64,000 nt of DNA from a virus: positions 48,424 through 112,423 of the IMG/VR virus record IMGVR_UViG_3300027733_000036; one strand, written 5' to 3'. Position numbers and translations under genes: made by a program. Position 1 is the stretch's first letter. Every line of letters starts with the position of its first letter. The notes under the pieces were generated by a model. The model had not been told where the DNA came from. It ran no database searches and was given only the letters and a program-made list of their open reading frames with translations. Below are positions 47,721-62,496 of the stretch, piece by piece.

Positions 47721-48469
47721 TCATTATCCTTATTGTCTGAATACATACTATTGCACTTAGAGTACAATGGACATGTTTGTAATTTACAATTAAAAATTGG
47801 CAAGTAGACATTCTTTTTATAAGCAAAAAGTGCACTTGCATATACACTATTTAGCTTTCTTAAATCAATTTCTTTGTCTGTGAAATTCTCTATATTATAA
47901 TTAGATCCGCTTAGATATACAATATATATTTTCTTATTCCAATGTTTTAACAAAGGCAAGTGGAAGTGAGCTGTTTTAATAAACTCTTTGCGTGGCAAAT
48001 AGCTAAATAGATATATTGCTTTGTCACTAATTATAGGAATAGCAAAATTAACTGTGATTCCTGAGCTTGTGAATAACTCAACATGGCTGACATGTTTAAT
48101 ATTTATTTCCTGTAAGTATGAACGCCATTTAAATATAGAAAATATAATGTCGTTATTCTTATTATGAAAAATAAAACTATGTCCTGCTTTTCTAAGTAAG
48201 TTTTGAGCTATAGAAAATCTCAAGATAATGTCATTGTCAGATGGAAATACTTGCTTCCTTCCATAATAGCTTGTCACATACACCATTAAATGATGCAGTA
48301 ACAGGCTATATGGATCTTTTGAGAAGTCCCAAGCAGGAACTCGTTCTAGTATTTCATTCCTAAAGTATTCTCCACACCTCATGAAGCTTATCAATTGATT
48401 AATGCTAAGCTCCCGGAGCCTAACATTGCTATCAATTAAGTCATCGATTGGTGCAGAGATTCTAGGCAT
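47717..48469 (-). CDS. Degenerate Cas4/RecB-like protein (250 aa)
   Basis: Read from the second ATG (48469), because AGAGG lies 6 nt before it and touches the first ATG at 48475. The N-terminal LSINQLISFMRCGEYFRNEI, with one Cys, and the C-terminal CKLQTCPLYSKC, with three, mimic the four-Cys iron-sulfur layout of Cas4/AddB nucleases. The expected Asp and Glu-x-Lys catalytic positions are not recognisable in between (the strand reads VNFAIPIISDKAIYLFSYLP). It may be a catalytically dead relative of the 395-residue nuclease upstream, kept for DNA or partner binding. Confidence in the family is modest. Confidence 0.6.
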   Translation of the reverse strand: MPRISAPIDDLIDSNVRLRELSINQLISFMRCGEYFRNEILERVPAWDFSKDPYSLLLHHLMVYVTSYYGRKQVFPSDNDIILRFSIAQNLLRKAGHSFIFHNKNNDIIFSIFKWRSYLQEINIKHVSHVELFTSSGITVNFAIPIISDKAIYLFSYLPRKEFIKTAHFHLPLLKHWNKKIYIVYLSGSNYNIENFTDKEIDLRKLNSVYASALFAYKKNVYLPIFNCKLQTCPLYSKCNSMYSDNKDNE

Positions 48470-51011
48470 TGTCATCCTCTAGTGCCCAGACGTCAACATC
48501 TTCTTTCTTGGCATAGTCTTTGTTATTTTTATCGTCAGCCTGGTCTCTGGCATTGACAACCTGAGCAATCTCATAGGTGTCAACTTCTTCGAACCAAGAA
48601 CTCGTAGGATGAAATAGGAAACAGTGAGTGTCCTTATCACCTGAGATCTTGTTCTTGCCAATAATTGCTTCGATGACTGGGAACTTCTGAACTACACCAG
48701 GACGGCTAACACTCTTAGTCTCATGGTACCAGTTACTCTTATCGCCGAATACATGCTTATGATTATAAACGTGTACAATGGCGCTAGCGTCGTATCTAAA
48801 GGCACGAGACTCTGCTAGGCTAGAGTTGGTAGGACGTTGATCCTTCTGCCTCTTATTCGAGTCGCTGTTGTATTCTAGGGTACCGCCAATAGCAATGTTG
48901 TGACGGACTGAAGCCATCTTAACACGATTAGAGATATCCTTGAATGCAAGACGTGCATCGGCATTGCCAAGCGGAAGCTTATGGATATTATCCAAGTAAG
49001 CAAAGATATTATCGCTAGGGTACTTCTTGCGGAAGCTAGCAATAGCACGCTCAAAGTCTTCTAGATTCTGGGCATGTGGAATGCCAAAAAGAACTAGACG
49101 CTCTTCGCGGGCCATCTTCATAATCTCTTGATAGCCAACCTTATAAGCATAAAGCATATCCTGTTCTAACTGAGGATCAATATCCCGAAGGATCTTACCC
49201 CAGTACTTAGGACGAACAATATGATTGATCTCTAGAGGAAAGCCGTCTGCGTATCCGCGATAACCACGAGTACGATGACGGCCAGCCATAGCTACAAACT
49301 TAGGAAACAACTCAGGAACGCTATCGTCAATAGTCATATAAAGAACATGAAGATTGTTGTCAGCTTCTGGCAGTGCTAGGTTGTAACATGTAAAGCTACT
49401 GAATGAGCTCTTACCTGCATTCTCTTCGCCACCTATGCAGATCATGCGACCTCTTGACCAGTCATTGTTAAATGCGCTGGCAAATCCGGGCATGAGTGGC
49501 ATTTGGAAACCAGGGAATACAGCTTCAAACGCTTCTGCTTCATCTTGAAAACGAAGCATCTCTTGAAGATAGAAGTCACCACTGCTAACACTAGTATTAG
49601 TATCAGCTTGAATGCTTTCAATCCTGGTCCTAAGACCATCAAGTACTGAGATAGCGCTAGTAGGATTCTTACGAATATCAAGCATAGCCTGATCAGTAAG
49701 GTCCTTTACCTTCTGCTTCTGAGTAAGCTCTTTCTCATTTACAATATTGTCAATCTCTTCAGTGATAGTATTGAAGCTGTAACCAGTCTTCATGCTAAGA
49801 CTGCGAGCTAGATCTTCTCGTTCTAGAGGACTATGGAAGCTGGAGATAAGCTTAATGAGATCAAGCATAACCTCGCGGGATCCATTCTCTCTGGTTAGTT
49901 CACCAAAGAGCCAGTCAAATGCAGGGATATTCTCAATGCCCTTAAATACTTCAATGTCATTAGCGCGAATAAACTCGTCTGGGTCAAGGTCGCCGTTGGT
50001 ACGAAGATCTTTTACGTAAAGCTTATGGCCGCCTAGTGTGCTAGCATGTTCTCTGATTGCATTGATAGTGCATTTAATACCTGCATCATCAGGATCAAAG
50101 CAAAGTACATACTTGCTAGGATTGAGGTTCTTAAGTAGTCTAGCCTGACCGGGAGTTAGGCTAGAACCACCTGCTGCCACAGTAGCCTTAAGGCCATTAT
50201 GATAACAGGTAATTGCACTGCTCTGGCCCTCAAAAACATAGAGGGTATCAGCACCTGACTTGATAGCTTGCTTAGCAATCTTATGATTGTAAAGCAGGTT
50301 GCTCTTATCAAAGATTGGGACAATGCCACTGGTGTTTACCCACTTATCCTTGTCGCCCTTCTGCCAAGTAATCTTACGAGCTGCGAAACCAACGGTTCTG
50401 CCTTTCTCGTCATAGAATGTGGTTACTAGCTTATTCTGAGGATCAGCAAACATGCTTGTGTCATAGATGCCAAATCCCTGGTCAGGACGCTCTTCTCTTA
50501 GCTTATCTAGTACGGTAAGACCGTCACCGATCTCAACATAGCCAACTCCCATCTCAAGCAGCTTATCTGCGTTCCATGAACGCTCTGCAATATACTTATA
50601 CAAATCTGGGTGAGCAGTATCAGTAATCTTTGTAATAGATGAGGAGACCTCATGATATACTTGAAAATACTTTTGACGCTCAATCTCTTCTGGGCTTGGC
50701 TTGCCAAAGTTATAGTCAATAGCAAATAGATCTGCTACTTCCTTAGCAACATCAACAAATTCATCACCAGCAAGCTGGCGACCCGTTCTAATCGCATGAA
50801 CATTCAAGGAACTGCCATAGAATCCGCAACTAAAACATTTTACATATCCACGATCATCATAGACATGCATACTTGGATTATGGTCATCATGGTCTGGATT
50901 GACACAGACAACCTTTTTATTTTTCGTAACCTCAATGCCAATCTTCTCTAGATATTGAGAGACTGGAATTCTATCAATCGTCTCTACTAACTCACTCAGA
51001 TTTGTAATCAT
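48462..51011 (-). CDS. Primase-helicase fusion, T7 gp4-like
   Basis: An 849-residue replication protein with GAGGAG before the ATG. Order of domains: a CHC2 zinc finger with C36, H41, C59 and C62; a TOPRIM primase core with E261 in FEGQSS and D306/D308 in FDPDDAG; then a RecA-fold, DnaB-type helicase. The helicase has a Walker A variant GGEENAGKSS at 527-536 and a downstream LDNIH acidic strand. It primes lagging-strand synthesis and unwinds the fork, and would work with the split polymerase upstream. The gene is less AT-rich than the late genes. Confidence 0.92.
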   Translation of the reverse strand: MITNLSELVETIDRIPVSQYLEKIGIEVTKNKKVVCVNPDHDDHNPSMHVYDDRGYVKCFSCGFYGSSLNVHAIRTGRQLAGDEFVDVAKEVADLFAIDYNFGKPSPEEIERQKYFQVYHEVSSSITKITDTAHPDLYKYIAERSWNADKLLEMGVGYVEIGDGLTVLDKLREERPDQGFGIYDTSMFADPQNKLVTTFYDEKGRTVGFAARKITWQKGDKDKWVNTSGIVPIFDKSNLLYNHKIAKQAIKSGADTLYVFEGQSSAITCYHNGLKATVAAGGSSLTPGQARLLKNLNPSKYVLCFDPDDAGIKCTINAIREHASTLGGHKLYVKDLRTNGDLDPDEFIRANDIEVFKGIENIPAFDWLFGELTRENGSREVMLDLIKLISSFHSPLEREDLARSLSMKTGYSFNTITEEIDNIVNEKELTQKQKVKDLTDQAMLDIRKNPTSAISVLDGLRTRIESIQADTNTSVSSGDFYLQEMLRFQDEAEAFEAVFPGFQMPLMPGFASAFNNDWSRGRMICIGGEENAGKSSFSSFTCYNLALPEADNNLHVLYMTIDDSVPELFPKFVAMAGRHRTRGYRGYADGFPLEINHIVRPKYWGKILRDIDPQLEQDMLYAYKVGYQEIMKMAREERLVLFGIPHAQNLEDFERAIASFRKKYPSDNIFAYLDNIHKLPLGNADARLAFKDISNRVKMASVRHNIAIGGTLEYNSDSNKRQKDQRPTNSSLAESRAFRYDASAIVHVYNHKHVFGDKSNWYHETKSVSRPGVVQKFPVIEAIIGKNKISGDKDTHCFLFHPTSSWFEEVDTYEIAQVVNARDQADDKNNKDYAKKEDVDVWALEDDNA

Positions 51012-53294: not shown

Positions 53295-53334
53295 ACTAGC
53301 CTCTGTACGAATATAAGAGAATATTTTAATCAAG

Positions 53335-53407
53335 CTCTGACTATAGGATTTGAACCTATGACCTAGAAATTAACAGTTTCCCGCTTCTACCGCTGAGCTA
53401 AGCCAGA
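53335..53407 (-). tRNA. tRNA-Asn (anticodon GTT)
   Basis: A 73-base cloverleaf. The 7-bp acceptor stem is TCTGGCT/AGTCAGA with one G-T pair, and the discriminator is G. The D arm is short but workable. The anticodon stem GGAAA/TTTCT closes the loop CTGTTAA, giving anticodon GTT. A 5-base variable region (AGGTC) and T arm ATAGG-TTCAAAT-CCTAT complete it. CCA is not encoded. The anticodon arm resembles bacterial tRNA-Asn. It may supplement host supply for the Asn-rich virion proteins. Confidence 0.9.
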
Positions 53408-54981: not shown

Positions 54982-57402
54982 TTACTTTATTAAAGTAATT
55001 TTTCCCACTGGGCGAATCCGTAAGAAGTCATCTTTCTTGGTTGCTTTGTAGGGGAAGAATAATAGGGAACAATAGTCAAGCTTATCTTTGAGTTCTTCAT
55101 ATTGATCGGAGAACAGCGTGACTTCTGATATAGAAGATAAATCTTCGATTGTCAATGTTGCCATCAATTTTCCTTTTGATTTACCACTTTTAATTTGCTG
55201 TTCTTTAATATGAGATACCGCGACGAGCAGATTGCCTTCATTGCTGTTTGTCTCATCGATGTCTTCTATCTGATTAATAAGAATTCCTGGTGGAGTCTTA
55301 GTAATATAAGATAGTGGATGGCGACTAATAAAGAACTTACAATACTCTGATTCCCACTTAACAATTTGCAGTGGGACTCTATAGTCAGATGCTTTCTTAA
55401 TAGATTCTAAGTCAGGAAAAGTAGGCTGATCAGGAACTTTAAGAACTAATGGCTTCTTAGGTCTCAGCTCTGAGTAAACTTTCTTACTATCTGAATCTAG
55501 ATGGACTGTAATTACACCAGCTTTTAGTTTGGTTGTCCAGTCATCGAGCAAAGCAGGATAAGCATCTACTTCCTTGTTGCGTTCAAAAGCCTGAACTATT
55601 CTTGTTTGATAGTTCTCAACCTTTGTATAGTAATCAAAGATATCAGGAAGCTTATCTACAAGCTTGACTCTATCATAGCCAAAGCTATCAAATGCGCCAA
55701 CCTTTGCAAGTATACTAACAACACCAGAGTTAATCTTTGTACGATTGATTCTAGTGAAGAAGTCAGCCATGCTTGTAAAGGACTTGCGACCGCGTGCCTT
55801 AAGTATAAGGTCACTAGCTTTGTTACCAATGCCATTGATCATACCAAGGCCAAACAGAATAGTATTGTCATCCAACTTAGTAAAGCCAATATCACTATTG
55901 TTAATACTAGGTGGAAGAATGTTGTAACCCATCTGGCGATACTCGTTGATATATCTGACTAGCTTCTCAGGCTTACCACTTCTAACAGTCATTAGCGTAA
56001 GCATAAAATCTGTAGGATAGTAAGTCTTAAGATAGGCATTGAAGTAAGTAATAAATGCGTAAGCGAGAGCATGGCTTTTATTGAAGCCATACTCAGCAAA
56101 TGCCGCAATAACATTCCAAATACGAGTTGACTCTCCCATATCAATCTTATGGAGACGTGCACAGCCATCCACAAAAAGTGTACGATACTCTGCCATTAGC
56201 GCAGCATCTTTCTTGCCCATAGCCTTTCTGATCTTATCAGCTTCCTGAAGCGTTACACCTGCAAGAATCTGACAGGCAGCCATAATCTGTTCCTGATAGA
56301 TAAGGACACCGCCGGTCTCGGCAAGTACATCATCAAGTAATGGATGCAACTTATTCTGAGTTTGACGAGTCTTCTTATAGTCAATGTAGTCTTGAAGAAG
56401 ACCAGAGTCACGAGGACCAGGACGATTAAGAGCTGAGAAGACTGCCAGATCTTGAACGCTTTGCGGCTTAAGATCAGCTACAAGCTTTAGAAGATAAGTC
56501 TCTTCCATCTGGAATAGACCAGCTGTAAATCCCTTATTGATTAATTCAAACACGGCTGGATCATCAGTAGGAACTTCTTCCTCTAGCCACTTAAGAGACT
56601 TGCCAATGCGCTTACAGGTAAGATCATTAATTGTAAGACAGTCAATCCTGAGGATATCGAACTTAATAAAGTTCATCTTTTCTAAGGTTGGACCTTCCCA
56701 CTGGGTAAGATTAAACCAATCTGCGCCTTCAGTCTTGCTCTTGCGAATAGGTATCATCTGATCTACTGGACTTGTACCAATTAGAACTGCGCTAGCATGT
56801 ACACTAACTTCTTTTGCTTGACCATCTACTGGACCGCAAAGGCTAAAGATATCTTGATTAGCTTCTACAATCTTTTTTATGTGTTCGCTATTGTCTTCGA
56901 TTAGTTCTTTATAAGTTACATACTTGCCACGATGACTTTCTGGTAAACTATCTGCCAGTCGCTCTGCGTCGGCAATAGTTCTATATGAACCGTCTGCATG
57001 TTTAAGTAACTTAGTAAAAGCTTTAACGCTGGTCTTAAGAGACCAAGGCTTATACGTAGATACACGAAGTACACGGTCATGGCCATACTTAACTTGAAGT
57101 GCTTTGATTAAATCATCAGCACGAACATTACAGAAGTCAGTGTCAATGTCTGGACCTTCGCCGTCAACATGATAAGTAACGCGTTCGTCTGGATTATAAA
57201 TATCTGAAAGACCAAGAGCATAAATTAAAGCAGAGTTACTTTTATTGCTAAGCTTTGTCTTGCTGACATAAGCCTTATTGATAAAATCAATTGTTTCGTC
57301 TGTAAGATAACGAGTCTCAAAGTCTAAATAATCTTTGTTTATTGTACTTAGCCTATCCTGTAGATAGAGCTGATTAAGATTTTTCTTGCTGATCATGTCC
57401 AT
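54982..57402 (-). CDS. dnaE: DNA polymerase III alpha, C-terminal part (catalytic DxD, fingers, OB)
   Basis: An 806-residue family C polymerase fragment. After an unusual 83-residue N-terminal region comes the catalytic GPDIDTDF (D87 and D89). Then come HASAVLIGTSP, NFIKFDIL, and the third-Asp region ALNRPGPRDSGLLQDYIDYK, followed by GVLIYQEQIMAA and fingers. The tail contains a probable OB fold (TLTIEDLSSISEVTLF, about 735-760). The PHP domain and the GS motif half of the palm are encoded by the gene at 57681. A short YALGLSDI segment before the DxD resembles palm sequence also present in the N-terminal half. The start could also be the ATG at 57396. Confidence 0.9.
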   Translation of the reverse strand: MDMISKKNLNQLYLQDRLSTINKDYLDFETRYLTDETIDFINKAYVSKTKLSNKSNSALIYALGLSDIYNPDERVTYHVDGEGPDIDTDFCNVRADDLIKALQVKYGHDRVLRVSTYKPWSLKTSVKAFTKLLKHADGSYRTIADAERLADSLPESHRGKYVTYKELIEDNSEHIKKIVEANQDIFSLCGPVDGQAKEVSVHASAVLIGTSPVDQMIPIRKSKTEGADWFNLTQWEGPTLEKMNFIKFDILRIDCLTINDLTCKRIGKSLKWLEEEVPTDDPAVFELINKGFTAGLFQMEETYLLKLVADLKPQSVQDLAVFSALNRPGPRDSGLLQDYIDYKKTRQTQNKLHPLLDDVLAETGGVLIYQEQIMAACQILAGVTLQEADKIRKAMGKKDAALMAEYRTLFVDGCARLHKIDMGESTRIWNVIAAFAEYGFNKSHALAYAFITYFNAYLKTYYPTDFMLTLMTVRSGKPEKLVRYINEYRQMGYNILPPSINNSDIGFTKLDDNTILFGLGMINGIGNKASDLILKARGRKSFTSMADFFTRINRTKINSGVVSILAKVGAFDSFGYDRVKLVDKLPDIFDYYTKVENYQTRIVQAFERNKEVDAYPALLDDWTTKLKAGVITVHLDSDSKKVYSELRPKKPLVLKVPDQPTFPDLESIKKASDYRVPLQIVKWESEYCKFFISRHPLSYITKTPPGILINQIEDIDETNSNEGNLLVAVSHIKEQQIKSGKSKGKLMATLTIEDLSSISEVTLFSDQYEELKDKLDYCSLLFFPYKATKKDDFLRIRPVGKITLIK

Positions 57403-57688
57403 CCAGTAGGCAGTGTTTAAGAAATACTTCTCTGTAAAGATTTAAAATCTCTTTTTTCTTCTCAGAGTCGCTAGTCCAATAGTGACGGAAAAATAAATAT
57501 AAAAAAGTAAAGAATGGAACTGTGTATATCCAACCAAGTCGGCTGTGCCAGTTCCAAGTATGATCTAGTAGAAAACTTTTAATAGGTAAGAAAGTCTCAG
57601 TTTTTGAGTTCCACTGATACTTCTCTTTGAAGACTTTCCTATAAGATAAGGTCTCTGGTGTATACACTATAGACTTTTCATTAGGCAT
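57374..57688 (-). CDS. Single-TM protein gene between the two polymerase halves
   Basis: A 104-residue protein read from the ATG at 57688, which overlaps the N-half stop (ATGCCTAA); an in-frame TTG at 57694 is possible. Residues about 51-71 (LGWIYTVPFFTFLYLFFRHY) form one clear membrane span with basic flanks. The last 29 bases overlap the C-half gene. No family recognised. Its coding frame is intact and overlaps both neighbours, so it looks like a genuine gene rather than spacer DNA. Confidence 0.62.
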   Translation of the reverse strand: MPNEKSIVYTPETLSYRKVFKEKYQWNSKTETFLPIKSFLLDHTWNWHSRLGWIYTVPFFTFLYLFFRHYWTSDSEKKKEILNLYREVFLKHCLLDGHDQQEKS

Positions 57689-58964
57689 TTTCAAGCTCTT
57701 TCATATCTTCTGAGTAATCTAATGTAATTCTTACTCGACCAGGATTGAGAAAGCGTTCAAACAATAGACCATGCTTAACAGGATCAAGATGCTTAGCTGT
57801 GATCCCTAGTGACCATGAGATCAAAGATCCGCCACCAGAACCACGAGCTGGGCCAACAGGTATACCCATACCCTTAGCCAGGCTAACATAGTCTTGAACG
57901 ACAAGGAAATAAGAACTATAGCGTGCCTCGTCAATGACTTGGAACTCATATCTAATTCTATCCTTGTAGGCTTTAGGGACATCAGTCCAACTCTTTACGC
58001 CAAGACGAGAGATAAGTCCAGCCTTAGCTTTCTTAAGAAGCATTAAGCTTGTCCCTTCGGGCGTCATGCCTTCGAGTTGAAGGTTAGGCGCTTTGGTTAC
58101 TCGCTCAAAGTAGTCACCATCTACGAGATCTGCTACATGCTGAGTATTAGTAATTGCCTCATGTGGTAACTGCCAGTCATCACAAAGAGTCTTTGCAAAC
58201 TCGGCATCATACATCCAAGCATTATGATCTTGAACTTCATATGGCATTGTGTCTGGAGTCTTATGCATGCTTACGCACATAACATAGCTACGTAGCTTAT
58301 ACTGATCTTGATTCTGATGATGAGCATCAGCTGTAAGTACAAGAGGAATATTCTTCCTCTTGCTTAGATCAATTAGATATTGATTGTAACCATATTGTTT
58401 TTCAACGTTATTATGCTGAAGCTCAAGAAAGAAGCTGTCGTGTCCGACTGCCTCTCTGACTTCATCACACCATCTATCTATCTTTGCATGCTCACCCCAG
58501 TGCCAATACTTGAAGCATTGACTACTGATACAAGTACTAGTAGCAATCAAGCCTGTGGCGTGCTGCTTAAAAGTATCTAGATCAATACGAGGATAGCGAT
58601 AAAAGCCATCTTCATATGAATACTTAGTAAGCTTCATTAGGTTCTTGTAGCCTTCTTCGTTCTTGGCAAGTAATAGGAAGTGGCCATTGTTAACAGCCTT
58701 CTCGGCTACGCCATTCTCTGGCATAAAGTCAGACTTAGTCTTGGCGTCGCCAAAAGCAAGGTATGTTTCATTACCAATGATAGGCTTTACATTAGCTGCA
58801 CGGCAGCCTTTTACGAATTCTGGGATGCCACCCATATATCCATGATCTGTCAATGCAACTGCATTCATTCCTCTGGCAGCTACAGTCTTACCCATTTCAT
58901 CTGCAGGCTGTAAGCCATCAAGTAATGAGTAGTAACTATGCGCATGAAGATGTACCATTCCCAT
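57681..58964 (-). CDS. dnaE: DNA polymerase III alpha, N-terminal part (PHP plus first half of palm)
   Basis: About 427 residues, read from the ATG at 58964. The longer frame to 59054 runs through the promoter and lacks a ribosome site. It begins with the PHP domain HLHAHSYYSLLDG (H5, H7, H9) and ALTDHGYMGG, which in this family carries metal-dependent hydrolase or proofreading activity. It ends with the palm GS region RGSGGGSLISWSLGI and LLFERFLNPGRV. In intact DnaE the DxD motif follows directly; here the gene stops about 18 residues later. It must assemble with the product of the gene at 54982. Confidence 0.9.
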   Translation of the reverse strand: MGMVHLHAHSYYSLLDGLQPADEMGKTVAARGMNAVALTDHGYMGGIPEFVKGCRAANVKPIIGNETYLAFGDAKTKSDFMPENGVAEKAVNNGHFLLLAKNEEGYKNLMKLTKYSYEDGFYRYPRIDLDTFKQHATGLIATSTCISSQCFKYWHWGEHAKIDRWCDEVREAVGHDSFFLELQHNNVEKQYGYNQYLIDLSKRKNIPLVLTADAHHQNQDQYKLRSYVMCVSMHKTPDTMPYEVQDHNAWMYDAEFAKTLCDDWQLPHEAITNTQHVADLVDGDYFERVTKAPNLQLEGMTPEGTSLMLLKKAKAGLISRLGVKSWTDVPKAYKDRIRYEFQVIDEARYSSYFLVVQDYVSLAKGMGIPVGPARGSGGGSLISWSLGITAKHLDPVKHGLLFERFLNPGRVRITLDYSEDMKELENA

Positions 58965-59971: not shown

Positions 59972-61408
59972 TTACAAAAGTAGTTTGTTGTACCTCTCAA
60001 GAAACTCAGATTTAGCAAATTTTTTGTAATCACTAGGCAGTATTAGATAGAAGTTTTCAGGAATAAGTTCTTTTTGTATTTCAGGAATTATGCCGTCTGT
60101 AAAGCAAAGCACTGCATCGTATTTATATCGTCCGTTGTATTTGCCAATTATTTTTAACGCCGGATTTAAATCTGTGCAGCCGCCGCCTTTCCATTCAATC
60201 GTCTCTGCAAAGTTTTTATTTCTTGCCTTCTCTATGTCTCCTCTCACCTCACTATCATTCATAACATAATGAACACTAGCAGAACTTGCTAGCTTCCTTA
60301 AATAAGATACAAACTTTTCAGCAAGCTGAGTATCAATACTTCCAGAAGTATCGAAAATACAAGCAATTAGAGGCTTATCTGATTTCTTAGGACCAGGTAA
60401 GATTCTGGGTAGAACTACGTTATAGCTTGCCCATGATACTCCAGTCTTGTATCTTTTTCCAGGTCTAGTTAAACTCTTTAGAAAAAGAACAGCGTCTCCT
60501 TCGTAGGTTTTTACTTGAATATTCTTACTATCAAATTTGTCTAGCTTATCATTTGATAAGAAAGGAGTTTTGTTTACTTCTGCAATCTTTGCAATTTGCT
60601 TCTCAATTGAACTAATTCTTTCAGCTTGTTCCTCTTGGGAGATATCACTGTCGTCAAGGACCATGTCCATACTTAATTGATTTATTTCATTTTGTTTTTG
60701 TTTTTCTATAAAGTCCTGATAATCGGGACTATTTTTTAGCCAATTAAATATTTCATTAGTTGTGACATTATAAATTCCTTTTCTTATGCCATGGTCTGCA
60801 TGGAACAATTTACTATTAGGGTGTAAGTAATAAGCAGACAAATCAGGATGAGCAAAGGCAGCTTCTTCGTCAATACGAAAAGCATTAAAGAAAAATTTGC
60901 CTTTGGCATTCTGGAGAGGATAGTTTATAAATTCGCTAGGGTCATCTAGCTTAGTAAAAGATTCTACATATTCATAAAGTAACTCAGTATTAATTTTCAT
61001 ATCCTGAGCAACATTCATAAGATAGCGATCTTCAGCTGGAATCTTAAACATAGAAATAGGATGAGCATAAACAAAATGCTTAAGCTCATGCAGCAGAATA
61101 AAGTAAAAAGTCTTATCACTTAATCTGCTAATGTTTTCTATGTTAAAGTATAAAGCATATTCTTTGGTGCTAGGAGTCCAGGCAATGCAAGCTATAAACT
61201 CAGGATTAAAACCTTCGGCTACAGCTTCCTCTTTAGATAAGAAGTATCTGTCTAAACAAATCAAGTACTCAGTTAGATCAACAAAAGTATAAGCAATTGC
61301 ATATGAATTGTAGTCTGTAACAGGACTATCTTTGCCTTCCTTGATAGCAATCAAAGAACGACAAAGGTTAGTAATCTTATCAGCATAAACTTTCTTTAAA
61401 ACATCCAT
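59972..61408 (-). CDS. VWA/metallopeptidase-like partner of MoxR ATPase
   Basis: A 478-residue protein. The N-terminal half contains a zinc-peptidase-like helix HELKHFVYAHP (H107, E108, H111). The C-terminal part is a von Willebrand A domain with the metal site DTSGS at 353-357, GGCTDL near 408 and FTDGI near 430. Such proteins pair with MoxR ATPases, as here, and are thought to act as chaperone-like complexes that insert metals or remodel partner proteins. The peptidase may be a binding fold rather than an active enzyme. A charged linker (about 235-300) joins the parts. The start overlaps the ATPase stop (TAATG). Confidence 0.82.
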   Translation of the reverse strand: MDVLKKVYADKITNLCRSLIAIKEGKDSPVTDYNSYAIAYTFVDLTEYLICLDRYFLSKEEAVAEGFNPEFIACIAWTPSTKEYALYFNIENISRLSDKTFYFILLHELKHFVYAHPISMFKIPAEDRYLMNVAQDMKINTELLYEYVESFTKLDDPSEFINYPLQNAKGKFFFNAFRIDEEAAFAHPDLSAYYLHPNSKLFHADHGIRKGIYNVTTNEIFNWLKNSPDYQDFIEKQKQNEINQLSMDMVLDDSDISQEEQAERISSIEKQIAKIAEVNKTPFLSNDKLDKFDSKNIQVKTYEGDAVLFLKSLTRPGKRYKTGVSWASYNVVLPRILPGPKKSDKPLIACIFDTSGSIDTQLAEKFVSYLRKLASSASVHYVMNDSEVRGDIEKARNKNFAETIEWKGGGCTDLNPALKIIGKYNGRYKYDAVLCFTDGIIPEIQKELIPENFYLILPSDYKKFAKSEFLERYNKLLL

Positions 61409-62496
61409 TATTTCTTTATATGAAGGTTAATCATTTCATAGAATTCAGGGACAAACTTTTTAGCGTAATCTCTTAGGTACTTAGTTTGATCAAGTTGTTC
61501 TTGCGACATATTAGGAATTAGATTTCTATATGTAAAGTAGATGCCAACTAGTTCTGACCTAGTCACATCTGGAGTCTTTAACCAGGCTTCAAGCTTACCA
61601 TTATAGAAGCTTGCATCTGCTAGCCAGTCTTTCCCGTTGAGAATTTGGAACCACTTGAAAGCAAGGTTTGCTTTGACTAGTCCACTGGCAAGAGCAATAA
61701 TTGCTTCTCTTAAGTTGCCTGTGATGTTCTGATTATTATTATTAACCTTCCACCACATGCACCAAGCCGCAAGTCTAGCAAGTATCTCAATAGTACGAGG
61801 ACATGGGCTAACTTCTTTCTCAACAGACCAGTTACCAGTTAGCTGGTTATTCTGGAATCCTTCTACTAGATCAGTACTATTATTAAGTATAAAGCTAAAC
61901 GCTGGATCAATGTGACCTAGTCTTGATTCAAGAAAGGAGTTGGTGTCTAGTGCGTAATGGACATGACTCCATCTAGCTTTCATTGCTTTATCAAGTGTAT
62001 CTGTATTGAATTCTCCAGTAGGTGGGTTACAAGCAGAAAGTAAACGACTAACAGGAGGTAGTTTATACTCTCCAAGGCGACGTTCTGCGGTGATACTCAT
62101 CATTGCATTTATACCTTCTTGCGTGCCGCGGTTTAACTCGTCAGCAAATAGGACATAGATACCACTGAGACTAGCAGGAATCCAAGATGGCCGCGTCTTA
62201 CTATGAGTCATATACTGATGATCAACAACTGGAATACCCCAGTCAGCTGTGTCAGTATGCGCAAGACGAAGATCGTAAAAGGTCTGAGGACCTAACTTAT
62301 CAATCTTAACACTAGCAAACTCACTGTTACAGAACATAGGAACATCTGCTTTTATATCAGCAAAGAAGCTCCTAGTAGTCTGCTCAATGATTGTACTCTT
62401 ACCAATACCACTGGCTCCCCAGACGCAGACAGGGATATCTGCGTCCAGGGAGATTCTAATAGCAAGCTCTAATTGCTTGTTATTAATTGTAGACAT
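61408..62496 (-). CDS. MoxR-type AAA+ ATPase
   Basis: A 362-residue protein with AAGGAG 5 nt before the ATG. Walker A GASGIGKST at 27-35, Walker B VLFADELNRG with D119/E120, sensor-like ACNPPTGEFN, and the arginine-containing KAMKARWSHV. These mark a MoxR/RavA-like AAA+ ATPase. The VWA-domain gene follows directly and overlaps by one base, so the two almost certainly form one machine. MoxR-VWA pairs also occur in other large phages, where their target is unknown. Confidence 0.87.
   Translation of the reverse strand: MSTINNKQLELAIRISLDADIPVCVWGASGIGKSTIIEQTTRSFFADIKADVPMFCNSEFASVKIDKLGPQTFYDLRLAHTDTADWGIPVVDHQYMTHSKTRPSWIPASLSGIYVLFADELNRGTQEGINAMMSITAERRLGEYKLPPVSRLLSACNPPTGEFNTDTLDKAMKARWSHVHYALDTNSFLESRLGHIDPAFSFILNNSTDLVEGFQNNQLTGNWSVEKEVSPCPRTIEILARLAAWCMWWKVNNNNQNITGNLREAIIALASGLVKANLAFKWFQILNGKDWLADASFYNGKLEAWLKTPDVTRSELVGIYFTYRNLIPNMSQEQLDQTKYLRDYAKKFVPEFYEMINLHIKK

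What the first reader, a model, noticed from the sequence alone, without database searches (positions are those of the whole stretch)
54982..58964. DNA polymerase III alpha split so that its active site is divided between two genes
Seen: the 58964-57681 gene holds PHP plus the palm GS region (RGSGGGSLI, LLFERFLNPGRV) and then stops. The 57402-54982 gene starts afresh and carries the PDIDTDF catalytic aspartates. Known: in family C polymerases the GS motif and the DxD motif belong to one palm domain. Inference: the two polypeptides must assemble to build one nucleotidyl-transfer site. The C-half even has a short second version of the palm entry (YALGLSDI, DERV) before the DxD. Split DnaE is known from cyanobacteria through split inteins, but no intein sequence is visible here.
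Basis: partly seen in the sequence, partly recalled or inferred. Interest (0 to 1): 0.78.

Follow-up and report, generated by a model that had tools for sequence, protein, structure and literature searches.

The report
Phage DNA polymerase split across genes
A group of large uncultured phages makes its only recognised replicative DNA polymerase, a bacterial-type Pol III alpha, as two separate proteins that each carry half of the active site, apparently without any splicing to rejoin them.

Summary
Confirmed, and wider than reported. In the window, dnaE is two genes. One holds PHP plus the palm GS motif (57681-58964, -). The other holds the catalytic aspartates, fingers, HhH and OB domains (54982-57402, -). 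The break falls at E. coli DnaE residue ~400, just before D401/D403. A small third gene (57374-57688) overlaps both. The break is not a sequencing error or decay: six close contigs and about 20 distant ones share it, with dN/dS 0.02-0.15 among close relatives. No intein or known intron is detectable. In several relatives, opposite-strand ORFs lie between the halves. No full-length dnaE, PolA or PolB was found in the large relatives searched. The C-gene begins with an ~80-residue 'head' conserved across the family; it looks like a degenerate palm entry that lost the GS loop (hhalign 20.8, 0 of 300 shuffles as high). A single-chain AlphaFold2 surrogate places both halves in the canonical DnaE fold (5lew 3.2 A, TM 0.76). 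Best reading: an intein-free two-chain polymerase with a shared active site, assembled without ligation. The nearest precedent is the 'minimal' split Pol III alpha predicted in jumbo phages (Iyer et al. 2021), but this one keeps all domains. Assembly is inferred, not shown.

The parts
57681..58964 (-). DnaE-N gene: PHP domain plus N-terminal part of palm with GS motif, 427 aa
   Evidence: Pfam PF02811 and PF07733 4-100; aligns to E. coli DnaE 6-400; dN/dS ~0.025
57825..57845 (-). GS motif RGSGGGS (dNTP-binding element of family C palm)
   Evidence: sequence
57684..57731 (-). N-gene tail RITLDYSEDMKELENA at the place of PDIDxDF; conserved (RISLDFSEDM..., and GRGATPLIFNxEM in distant relatives)
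   Evidence: dN/dS 0.05-0.13 in close pairs
57374..57688 (-). small intervening gene, ~104 aa, hydrophobic segment, overlaps the stop of DnaE-N and the start of DnaE-C
   Evidence: conserved ORF in close relatives, dN/dS 0.11-0.15; no Pfam match over its cut-off and no PHROG match
54982..57402 (-). DnaE-C gene: head, catalytic palm, fingers, HhH, OB, 806 aa (start may be 57396)
   Evidence: Pfam; aligns to E. coli DnaE 398-906; AF2 pLDDT 87
57154..57402 (-). C-head (aa 1-83): family-conserved domain resembling a degenerate palm entry (NKSNSALIYALGLSD)
   Evidence: alignments; hhalign vs palm entry 20.8, 0 of 300 shuffles as high; AF2 helices with pLDDT 81-91 over most of it
57133..57153 (-). 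PDIDTDF, first two catalytic aspartates (E. coli D401/D403)
56650..56664 (-). KFDIL, third catalytic aspartate (E. coli D555 equivalent)
   Evidence: invariant column D249 in the 60-sequence alignment

Best explanation
The two genes encode the two subunits of one family C (DnaE-type) replicative DNA polymerase. Subunit N supplies the PHP domain (metal-ligand motifs intact, so probably a proofreading exonuclease) and the GS element that binds the incoming dNTP. Subunit C supplies the three catalytic aspartates, fingers, HhH and OB domains. They fold and dock non-covalently into the normal DnaE architecture, completing the palm across the subunit interface. N's short tail and C's ~80-residue head, the latter a degenerate second copy of the palm entry, most likely serve as docking or stabilising elements at the cut. 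Shown here: two separate conserved genes, intact motifs divided between them, selection on every part, no recognised ligation element, no other recognised polymerase in large relatives. Inferred: physical assembly, catalytic activity, role of head and tail, origin by duplication with reciprocal loss.
For: Clean division of PF07733 (4-100 / 100-259) and of solved DnaE (6-400 / 398-906). The same organisation in 6 contigs at 91-100% identity and about 20 more distant contigs; 23 of 27 C-bearing contigs also hold the N-gene, and in the other 4 the C-gene lies within 6.2 kb of the contig end. dN/dS 0.02-0.03 for both cores, 0.05-0.13 for the tail and 0.07-0.11 for the head in close pairs. Opposite-strand ORFs between the halves in L219, L220, L221, L232; gaps up to 4 kb. 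No PolA or PolB in 7 large relatives and no other PF07733 in those searched. AF2 surrogate (L220 N + read-through linker + C): both halves mostly pLDDT >90, linker <50, pTM 0.78; matches 5lew at 3.2 A, TMt 0.76, and 2hpi at 3.1 A.
Against: No experiment, expression data or proteomics. The co-fold used an artificial linker and an alignment containing full-length DnaE rows, which favours the canonical arrangement; it was made for a relative (L220), not the window. Two 'palm entry' segments in one enzyme could compete for one place. No cultured phage of the 50,697 searched carries a detectable C-head, so nothing is biochemically known.
Confidence: 0.82

Rival explanations
1. The halves are rejoined by an unrecognised splicing event (protein trans-splicing by a divergent split intein, or a cis/trans RNA intron), giving one ordinary DnaE.
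For: The same site is a hot spot: split inteins plus a homing endonuclease in L020 and L081 and a homing-endonuclease ORF in Lactobacillus phage ATCC 8014-B2. NPHN^S in the distant C-heads superficially resembles an intein end.
Against: No Hint/intein profile hit while true cases are detected; no Rfam intron in the window or eight relatives; no endonuclease between the halves in the window; head and tail are coding and selected; opposite-strand ORFs lie between the halves in several relatives.
Confidence: 0.06
2. The C-protein is a self-sufficient polymerase whose head replaces the GS element, and the N-protein is a separate exonuclease or accessory factor.
For: The C-head resembles a palm entry and folds confidently in the C-protein alone.
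Against: The head has lost the GRGSxxGS loop (N[PK][HS]NS instead), while the N-protein keeps an intact GS motif and a complete N-terminal palm under purifying selection; N was found in every contig that extends more than 6.2 kb upstream of C.
Confidence: 0.08
3. The genes are decaying remnants of a dnaE replaced by another polymerase, or an assembly artefact.
For: Break inside a normally single gene; the window's record is a fragment.
Against: Same break in 27 contigs from many metagenomes; dN/dS 0.02-0.15 among close relatives; no PolA, PolB or other dnaE found in the large relatives searched.
Confidence: 0.02

Closest known systems
Minimal split DNA polymerase III alpha of group 2.2 jumbo phages (Iyer et al. 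2021, PMC7824862)
   Same: Pol III alpha predicted to be divided between an NTP-binding protein and an Mg2+/template-binding protein encoded by separate genes
   Different: Theirs lacks PHP and the other Pol III domains, accompanies a family B polymerase and has distantly located genes; here PHP, fingers, HhH and OB are all kept, no PolB was found, and the genes are adjacent or within ~4 kb
Cyanobacterial split DnaE (split intein) and phage 'fractured genes' with split inteins (L020, L081 here)
   Same: dnaE in two genes; in L020 and L081 the cut is at the same place
   Different: Those carry intein halves, and L020/L081 an endonuclease between the genes; none here
Intron/homing-endonuclease interrupted dnaE (Lactobacillus phage ATCC 8014-B2, phrog_7513/12219)
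   Same: cut at the same DxD site, two annotated CDS
   Different: NUMOD3 endonuclease ORF between; C-part begins at the DxD region with no head
PHP|palm split dnaE (Microbacterium Krampusvirus, PMC7302621; Mycobacterium Papyrus)
   Same: two-gene DnaE in phages
   Different: cut between PHP and palm, so GS motif and aspartates stay in one protein
Mycobacterium tuberculosis DnaE1 (5lew, 7pu7)
   Same: among the closest solved structures for both halves, domain order, PHP motifs
   Different: single chain

Membership tests
Family C DNA polymerase (DnaE) | PHP, Pol3 palm, fingers, HhH domains | tested here: met
   PF02811, PF07733, PF17657, PF14579; fold
Family C DNA polymerase (DnaE) | GS motif and three catalytic aspartates | tested here: met
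   RGSGGGS in N; PDIDTDF and KFDIL in C
Family C DNA polymerase (DnaE) | GS and DxD in one polypeptide | tested here: not met
Family C DNA polymerase (DnaE) | polymerase activity | not testable with these tools
   needs purified subunits
Split-intein dnaE / fractured gene | Intein N and C halves at the break | tested here: not met
   no Hint/intein profile though the inteins of L020, L081 and L220 are detected
Split-intein dnaE / fractured gene | homing endonuclease between the halves | tested here: not met
   middle ORF has no endonuclease match
Intron-interrupted dnaE | self-splicing intron RNA at the break | tested here: not met
   Rfam; unknown intron types not excluded
Minimal split Pol III alpha (Iyer 2021) | separate NTP-binding and Mg2+-binding proteins | tested here: met
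Minimal split Pol III alpha (Iyer 2021) | lack of PHP and other Pol III domains | tested here: not met
Minimal split Pol III alpha (Iyer 2021) | accompanies a family B polymerase | tested here: not met
   PF00136 absent from 7 relatives; records may be incomplete
PHP|palm split dnaE | break between PHP and palm | tested here: not met
   break lies after the GS motif

The most novel reading that the evidence does not exclude
A phage lineage has evolved an obligate heterodimeric DnaE from a duplicated polymerase by reciprocal loss: one palm keeps the dNTP-binding GS element but has lost the aspartates, the other keeps the aspartates but has lost the GS loop, and the two half-dead palms complement each other at the subunit interface. 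This could let the phage control when its polymerase becomes active.
Probability: 0.4. Interest if true: 0.75.

Novelty: new variant of a known kind. Interest (0 to 1): 0.62.

Why it matters
Family C polymerases replicate nearly all bacterial chromosomes and are treated as single-chain enzymes. A full-domain DnaE naturally cut between its dNTP-binding motif and its catalytic aspartates, kept apart over great sequence divergence, would be a natural split polymerase. It would show that the palm can be assembled from two chains, offer a route to conditional (split) Pol III reporters, and give a possible stepping stone for how mobile elements at the DxD site or gene duplication can turn one essential enzyme into a two-subunit one. 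It also warns that annotation pipelines may call such polymerases truncated.

Tried and rejected
Intein: Pfam scan of both halves and the middle ORF, no match, positive controls worked. Intron: Rfam on the window junction and eight relatives, none. Full-length dnaE elsewhere, PolA, PolB: none found. First hhalign test of the C-head used options hhalign did not accept and gave no signal; rerun properly it gave a significant collinear match, so one search is superseded for that point. A short position-specific score for the GS helix gave only modest support (per-segment p mostly 0.005-0.03). The free C-core tree left the split groups in three places with weak backbone; the AU test did not reject one clade for all but L068 (p 0.94, held tree 49 log units better); the N-core tree groups them (support 92). 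L068 is a long branch and its common origin is unsettled. C-head search of 50,697 phage records found no convincing relative. A first co-fold alignment (A5) misplaced the C-heads and was replaced by A6. No earlier description of this full-domain, intein-free split was found in the full-text searches made; most subscription journals are not covered.

Full report
WHAT IS THERE. On the minus strand, 58964-57681 encodes 427 aa with a PHP domain and the first part of the Pol III palm, and 57402-54982 encodes 806 aa with the rest of the palm, fingers and HhH. The Pfam palm family PF07733 is divided almost without overlap: positions 4-100 in N, 100-259 in C. Against solved DnaE chains N covers E. coli residues 6-400 and C covers 398-906, so the GS motif (RGSGGGS, aa 374-380 of N) and the aspartates (PDIDTDF, aa 84-90 of C; KFDIL, aa 247-251) are in different proteins. 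N has the same PHP motifs as the M. tuberculosis DnaE1 chain 5lew (HLHAH, LLDG, TDHG, GNETY, STCIS, TADAHH). That this PHP domain is an active proofreader in M. tuberculosis is from general knowledge.

A third gene of about 104 aa (57374-57688) overlaps the end of N and the start of C. It has a hydrophobic stretch, no Pfam match over its cut-off and no PHROG match, but dN/dS of 0.11-0.15 between close relatives indicates that it is a gene.

NOT AN ARTEFACT. Six IMG/VR contigs with 91-100% identical C-proteins, three of them 174-176 kb long, have the same three-gene order. One of the six is 100% identical to the window's C-protein and may be the same virus. dN/dS is 0.02-0.04 for both cores, 0.05-0.13 for the 16-aa N tail in close pairs and 0.07-0.11 for the C-head in close pairs. 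The window's record has no other PF07733 or PF14579 match, and three of the close-clade records have exactly the two halves.

A BROADER FAMILY. A search with C-proteins of full and split type brought in two far relatives with altered starts, L038 and L068. An alignment of the C-heads then pulled out more from IMG/VR. In all I count 27 contigs with a C-head; 23 also hold an N-gene on the same strand. In the four without, the C-gene lies within 6.2 kb of the contig end. All distant N-proteins keep the GS motif and end shortly after FERFLNxGR, most with a tail such as GATPLIFNxEM. Distant C-proteins start with a head of the form DPDFLxFEE...NPHNSILLYxxGLTDxFDF...TIDGSPPDIDVDF, and the window's clade has NKSNSALIYALGLSD. 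The distance between the genes ranges from nothing to about 4 kb. In L219, L220, L221 and L232 ORFs between them run on the opposite strand. The C-head was not convincingly found in any of 50,697 phage records.

ONE ORIGIN? In the N-core tree all split sequences except L068 form one group (support 92, not starred). In the C-core tree they do not, but holding them together gives a better likelihood than the free quick search and AU p 0.94. A single origin is therefore likely but not proven, and L068 remains open.

THE C-HEAD. Compared as profiles, the C-head matches the palm entry of 126 full-length DnaE proteins collinearly over 76 columns. The hhalign score is 20.8; none of 300 column-shuffled heads reached it (best 20.4, mean 11.2). 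Six other regions of the same proteins scored 9.6-13.9, and the true palm entry of N scored 300. So the head is probably a degenerate second palm entry in which the glycine loop GRGSxxGS has become N[PK][HS]NS. The short GS-helix score points to the same block in 19 of 21 heads but is weak on its own. The N tail occupies the place of PDIDxDF; reading it as a degenerate DxD strand is my inference.

STRUCTURE. The window's C-protein is predicted with mean pLDDT 87 and the head mostly at 81-91; its best structural matches are all DnaE, then PolC. For the two-chain question I used a surrogate: in L220 the two genes share a frame, so the stretch from N through the intergenic DNA (stops read as Gly) into C was folded as one chain. 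Both halves came out mostly above pLDDT 90, the artificial linker below 50, pTM 0.78. The model superposes on single-chain DnaE along both halves (5lew TMt 0.76, 3.2 A; 2hpi 3.1 A; E. coli 2hnh 4.4 A). The alignment contained full-length DnaE, so this shows that the two proteins with head and tail are compatible with the canonical fold; it is not independent proof that they bind.

ALTERNATIVES. The same place is a hot spot for mobile elements. L020 and L081 have true split inteins with an endonuclease between. Lactobacillus phage ATCC 8014-B2 has a homing-endonuclease ORF at the site. None of these signs is present at the window's junction, Rfam found no intron in eight relatives, and opposite-strand ORFs between the halves make cis-splicing hard to sustain for several relatives. 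Two-gene DnaE in Microbacterium and Papyrus phages is cut between PHP and palm instead (PMC7302621). No PolA or PolB was found in seven relatives of 112-184 kb, so this enzyme is probably the replicative polymerase.

KNOWN OR NEW. Iyer et al. 2021 (PMC7824862) predicted a 'minimal' Pol III alpha split into NTP-binding and Mg2+-binding proteins in group 2.2 jumbo phages, beside a family B polymerase. That is the closest precedent for the principle. The present family differs in keeping the PHP, HhH and OB domains, in lacking PolB, in gene proximity, and in the C-head. I found no report of this form in the papers held. I file it as a new variant of a known kind.

Noticed in passing
L020:9962-15386 (also L018): 388-kb contig with dnaE broken by a split intein at FLNPSRD^SPPDIDIDF, the same place as the window's break, with an endonuclease-like ORF (homing-endonuclease PHROGs, DUF7487) between the halves.
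   Followed up: partly
L081:3562-7500: dnaE with intein halves at the same site and a GIY-YIG/NUMOD3 homing endonuclease between.
   Followed up: partly
L220:7986-9635; similar ends in L215, L233, L236: C-genes of the split family are interrupted again after the fingers; in L220 an intein begins at FADY^C, so in some phages dnaE may be in three pieces.
   Followed up: no
L068:3172-7800: N-gene carries an intein inside its PHP domain; N and C are in one frame separated by a single TAG, so read-through could make a fused chain.
   Followed up: partly
L056: Intein inserted inside the GS motif itself (HN^SAAGS) of a single-chain phage DnaE.
   Followed up: no
L219, L220, L221, L232, gap between N and C: Opposite-strand ORFs with a shared motif like VLGRPARGxKxIT...YKxNN lie between the two polymerase genes; looks like one conserved gene family of unknown role.
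   Followed up: no
window 59972-62496 (-): VWA-like protein (DUF2201) next to a MoxR-like AAA ATPase (the latter by eye), between PhoH and RecA genes and beside the polymerase genes.
   Followed up: no
window 48462-51011 (-): Fused DnaG-type primase (Toprim, zinc ribbon) and weak DnaB-like helicase in one 849-aa protein.
   Followed up: no
window 53334-53407 (-): Single tRNA-Asn (GTT) in the replication gene cluster.
   Followed up: no
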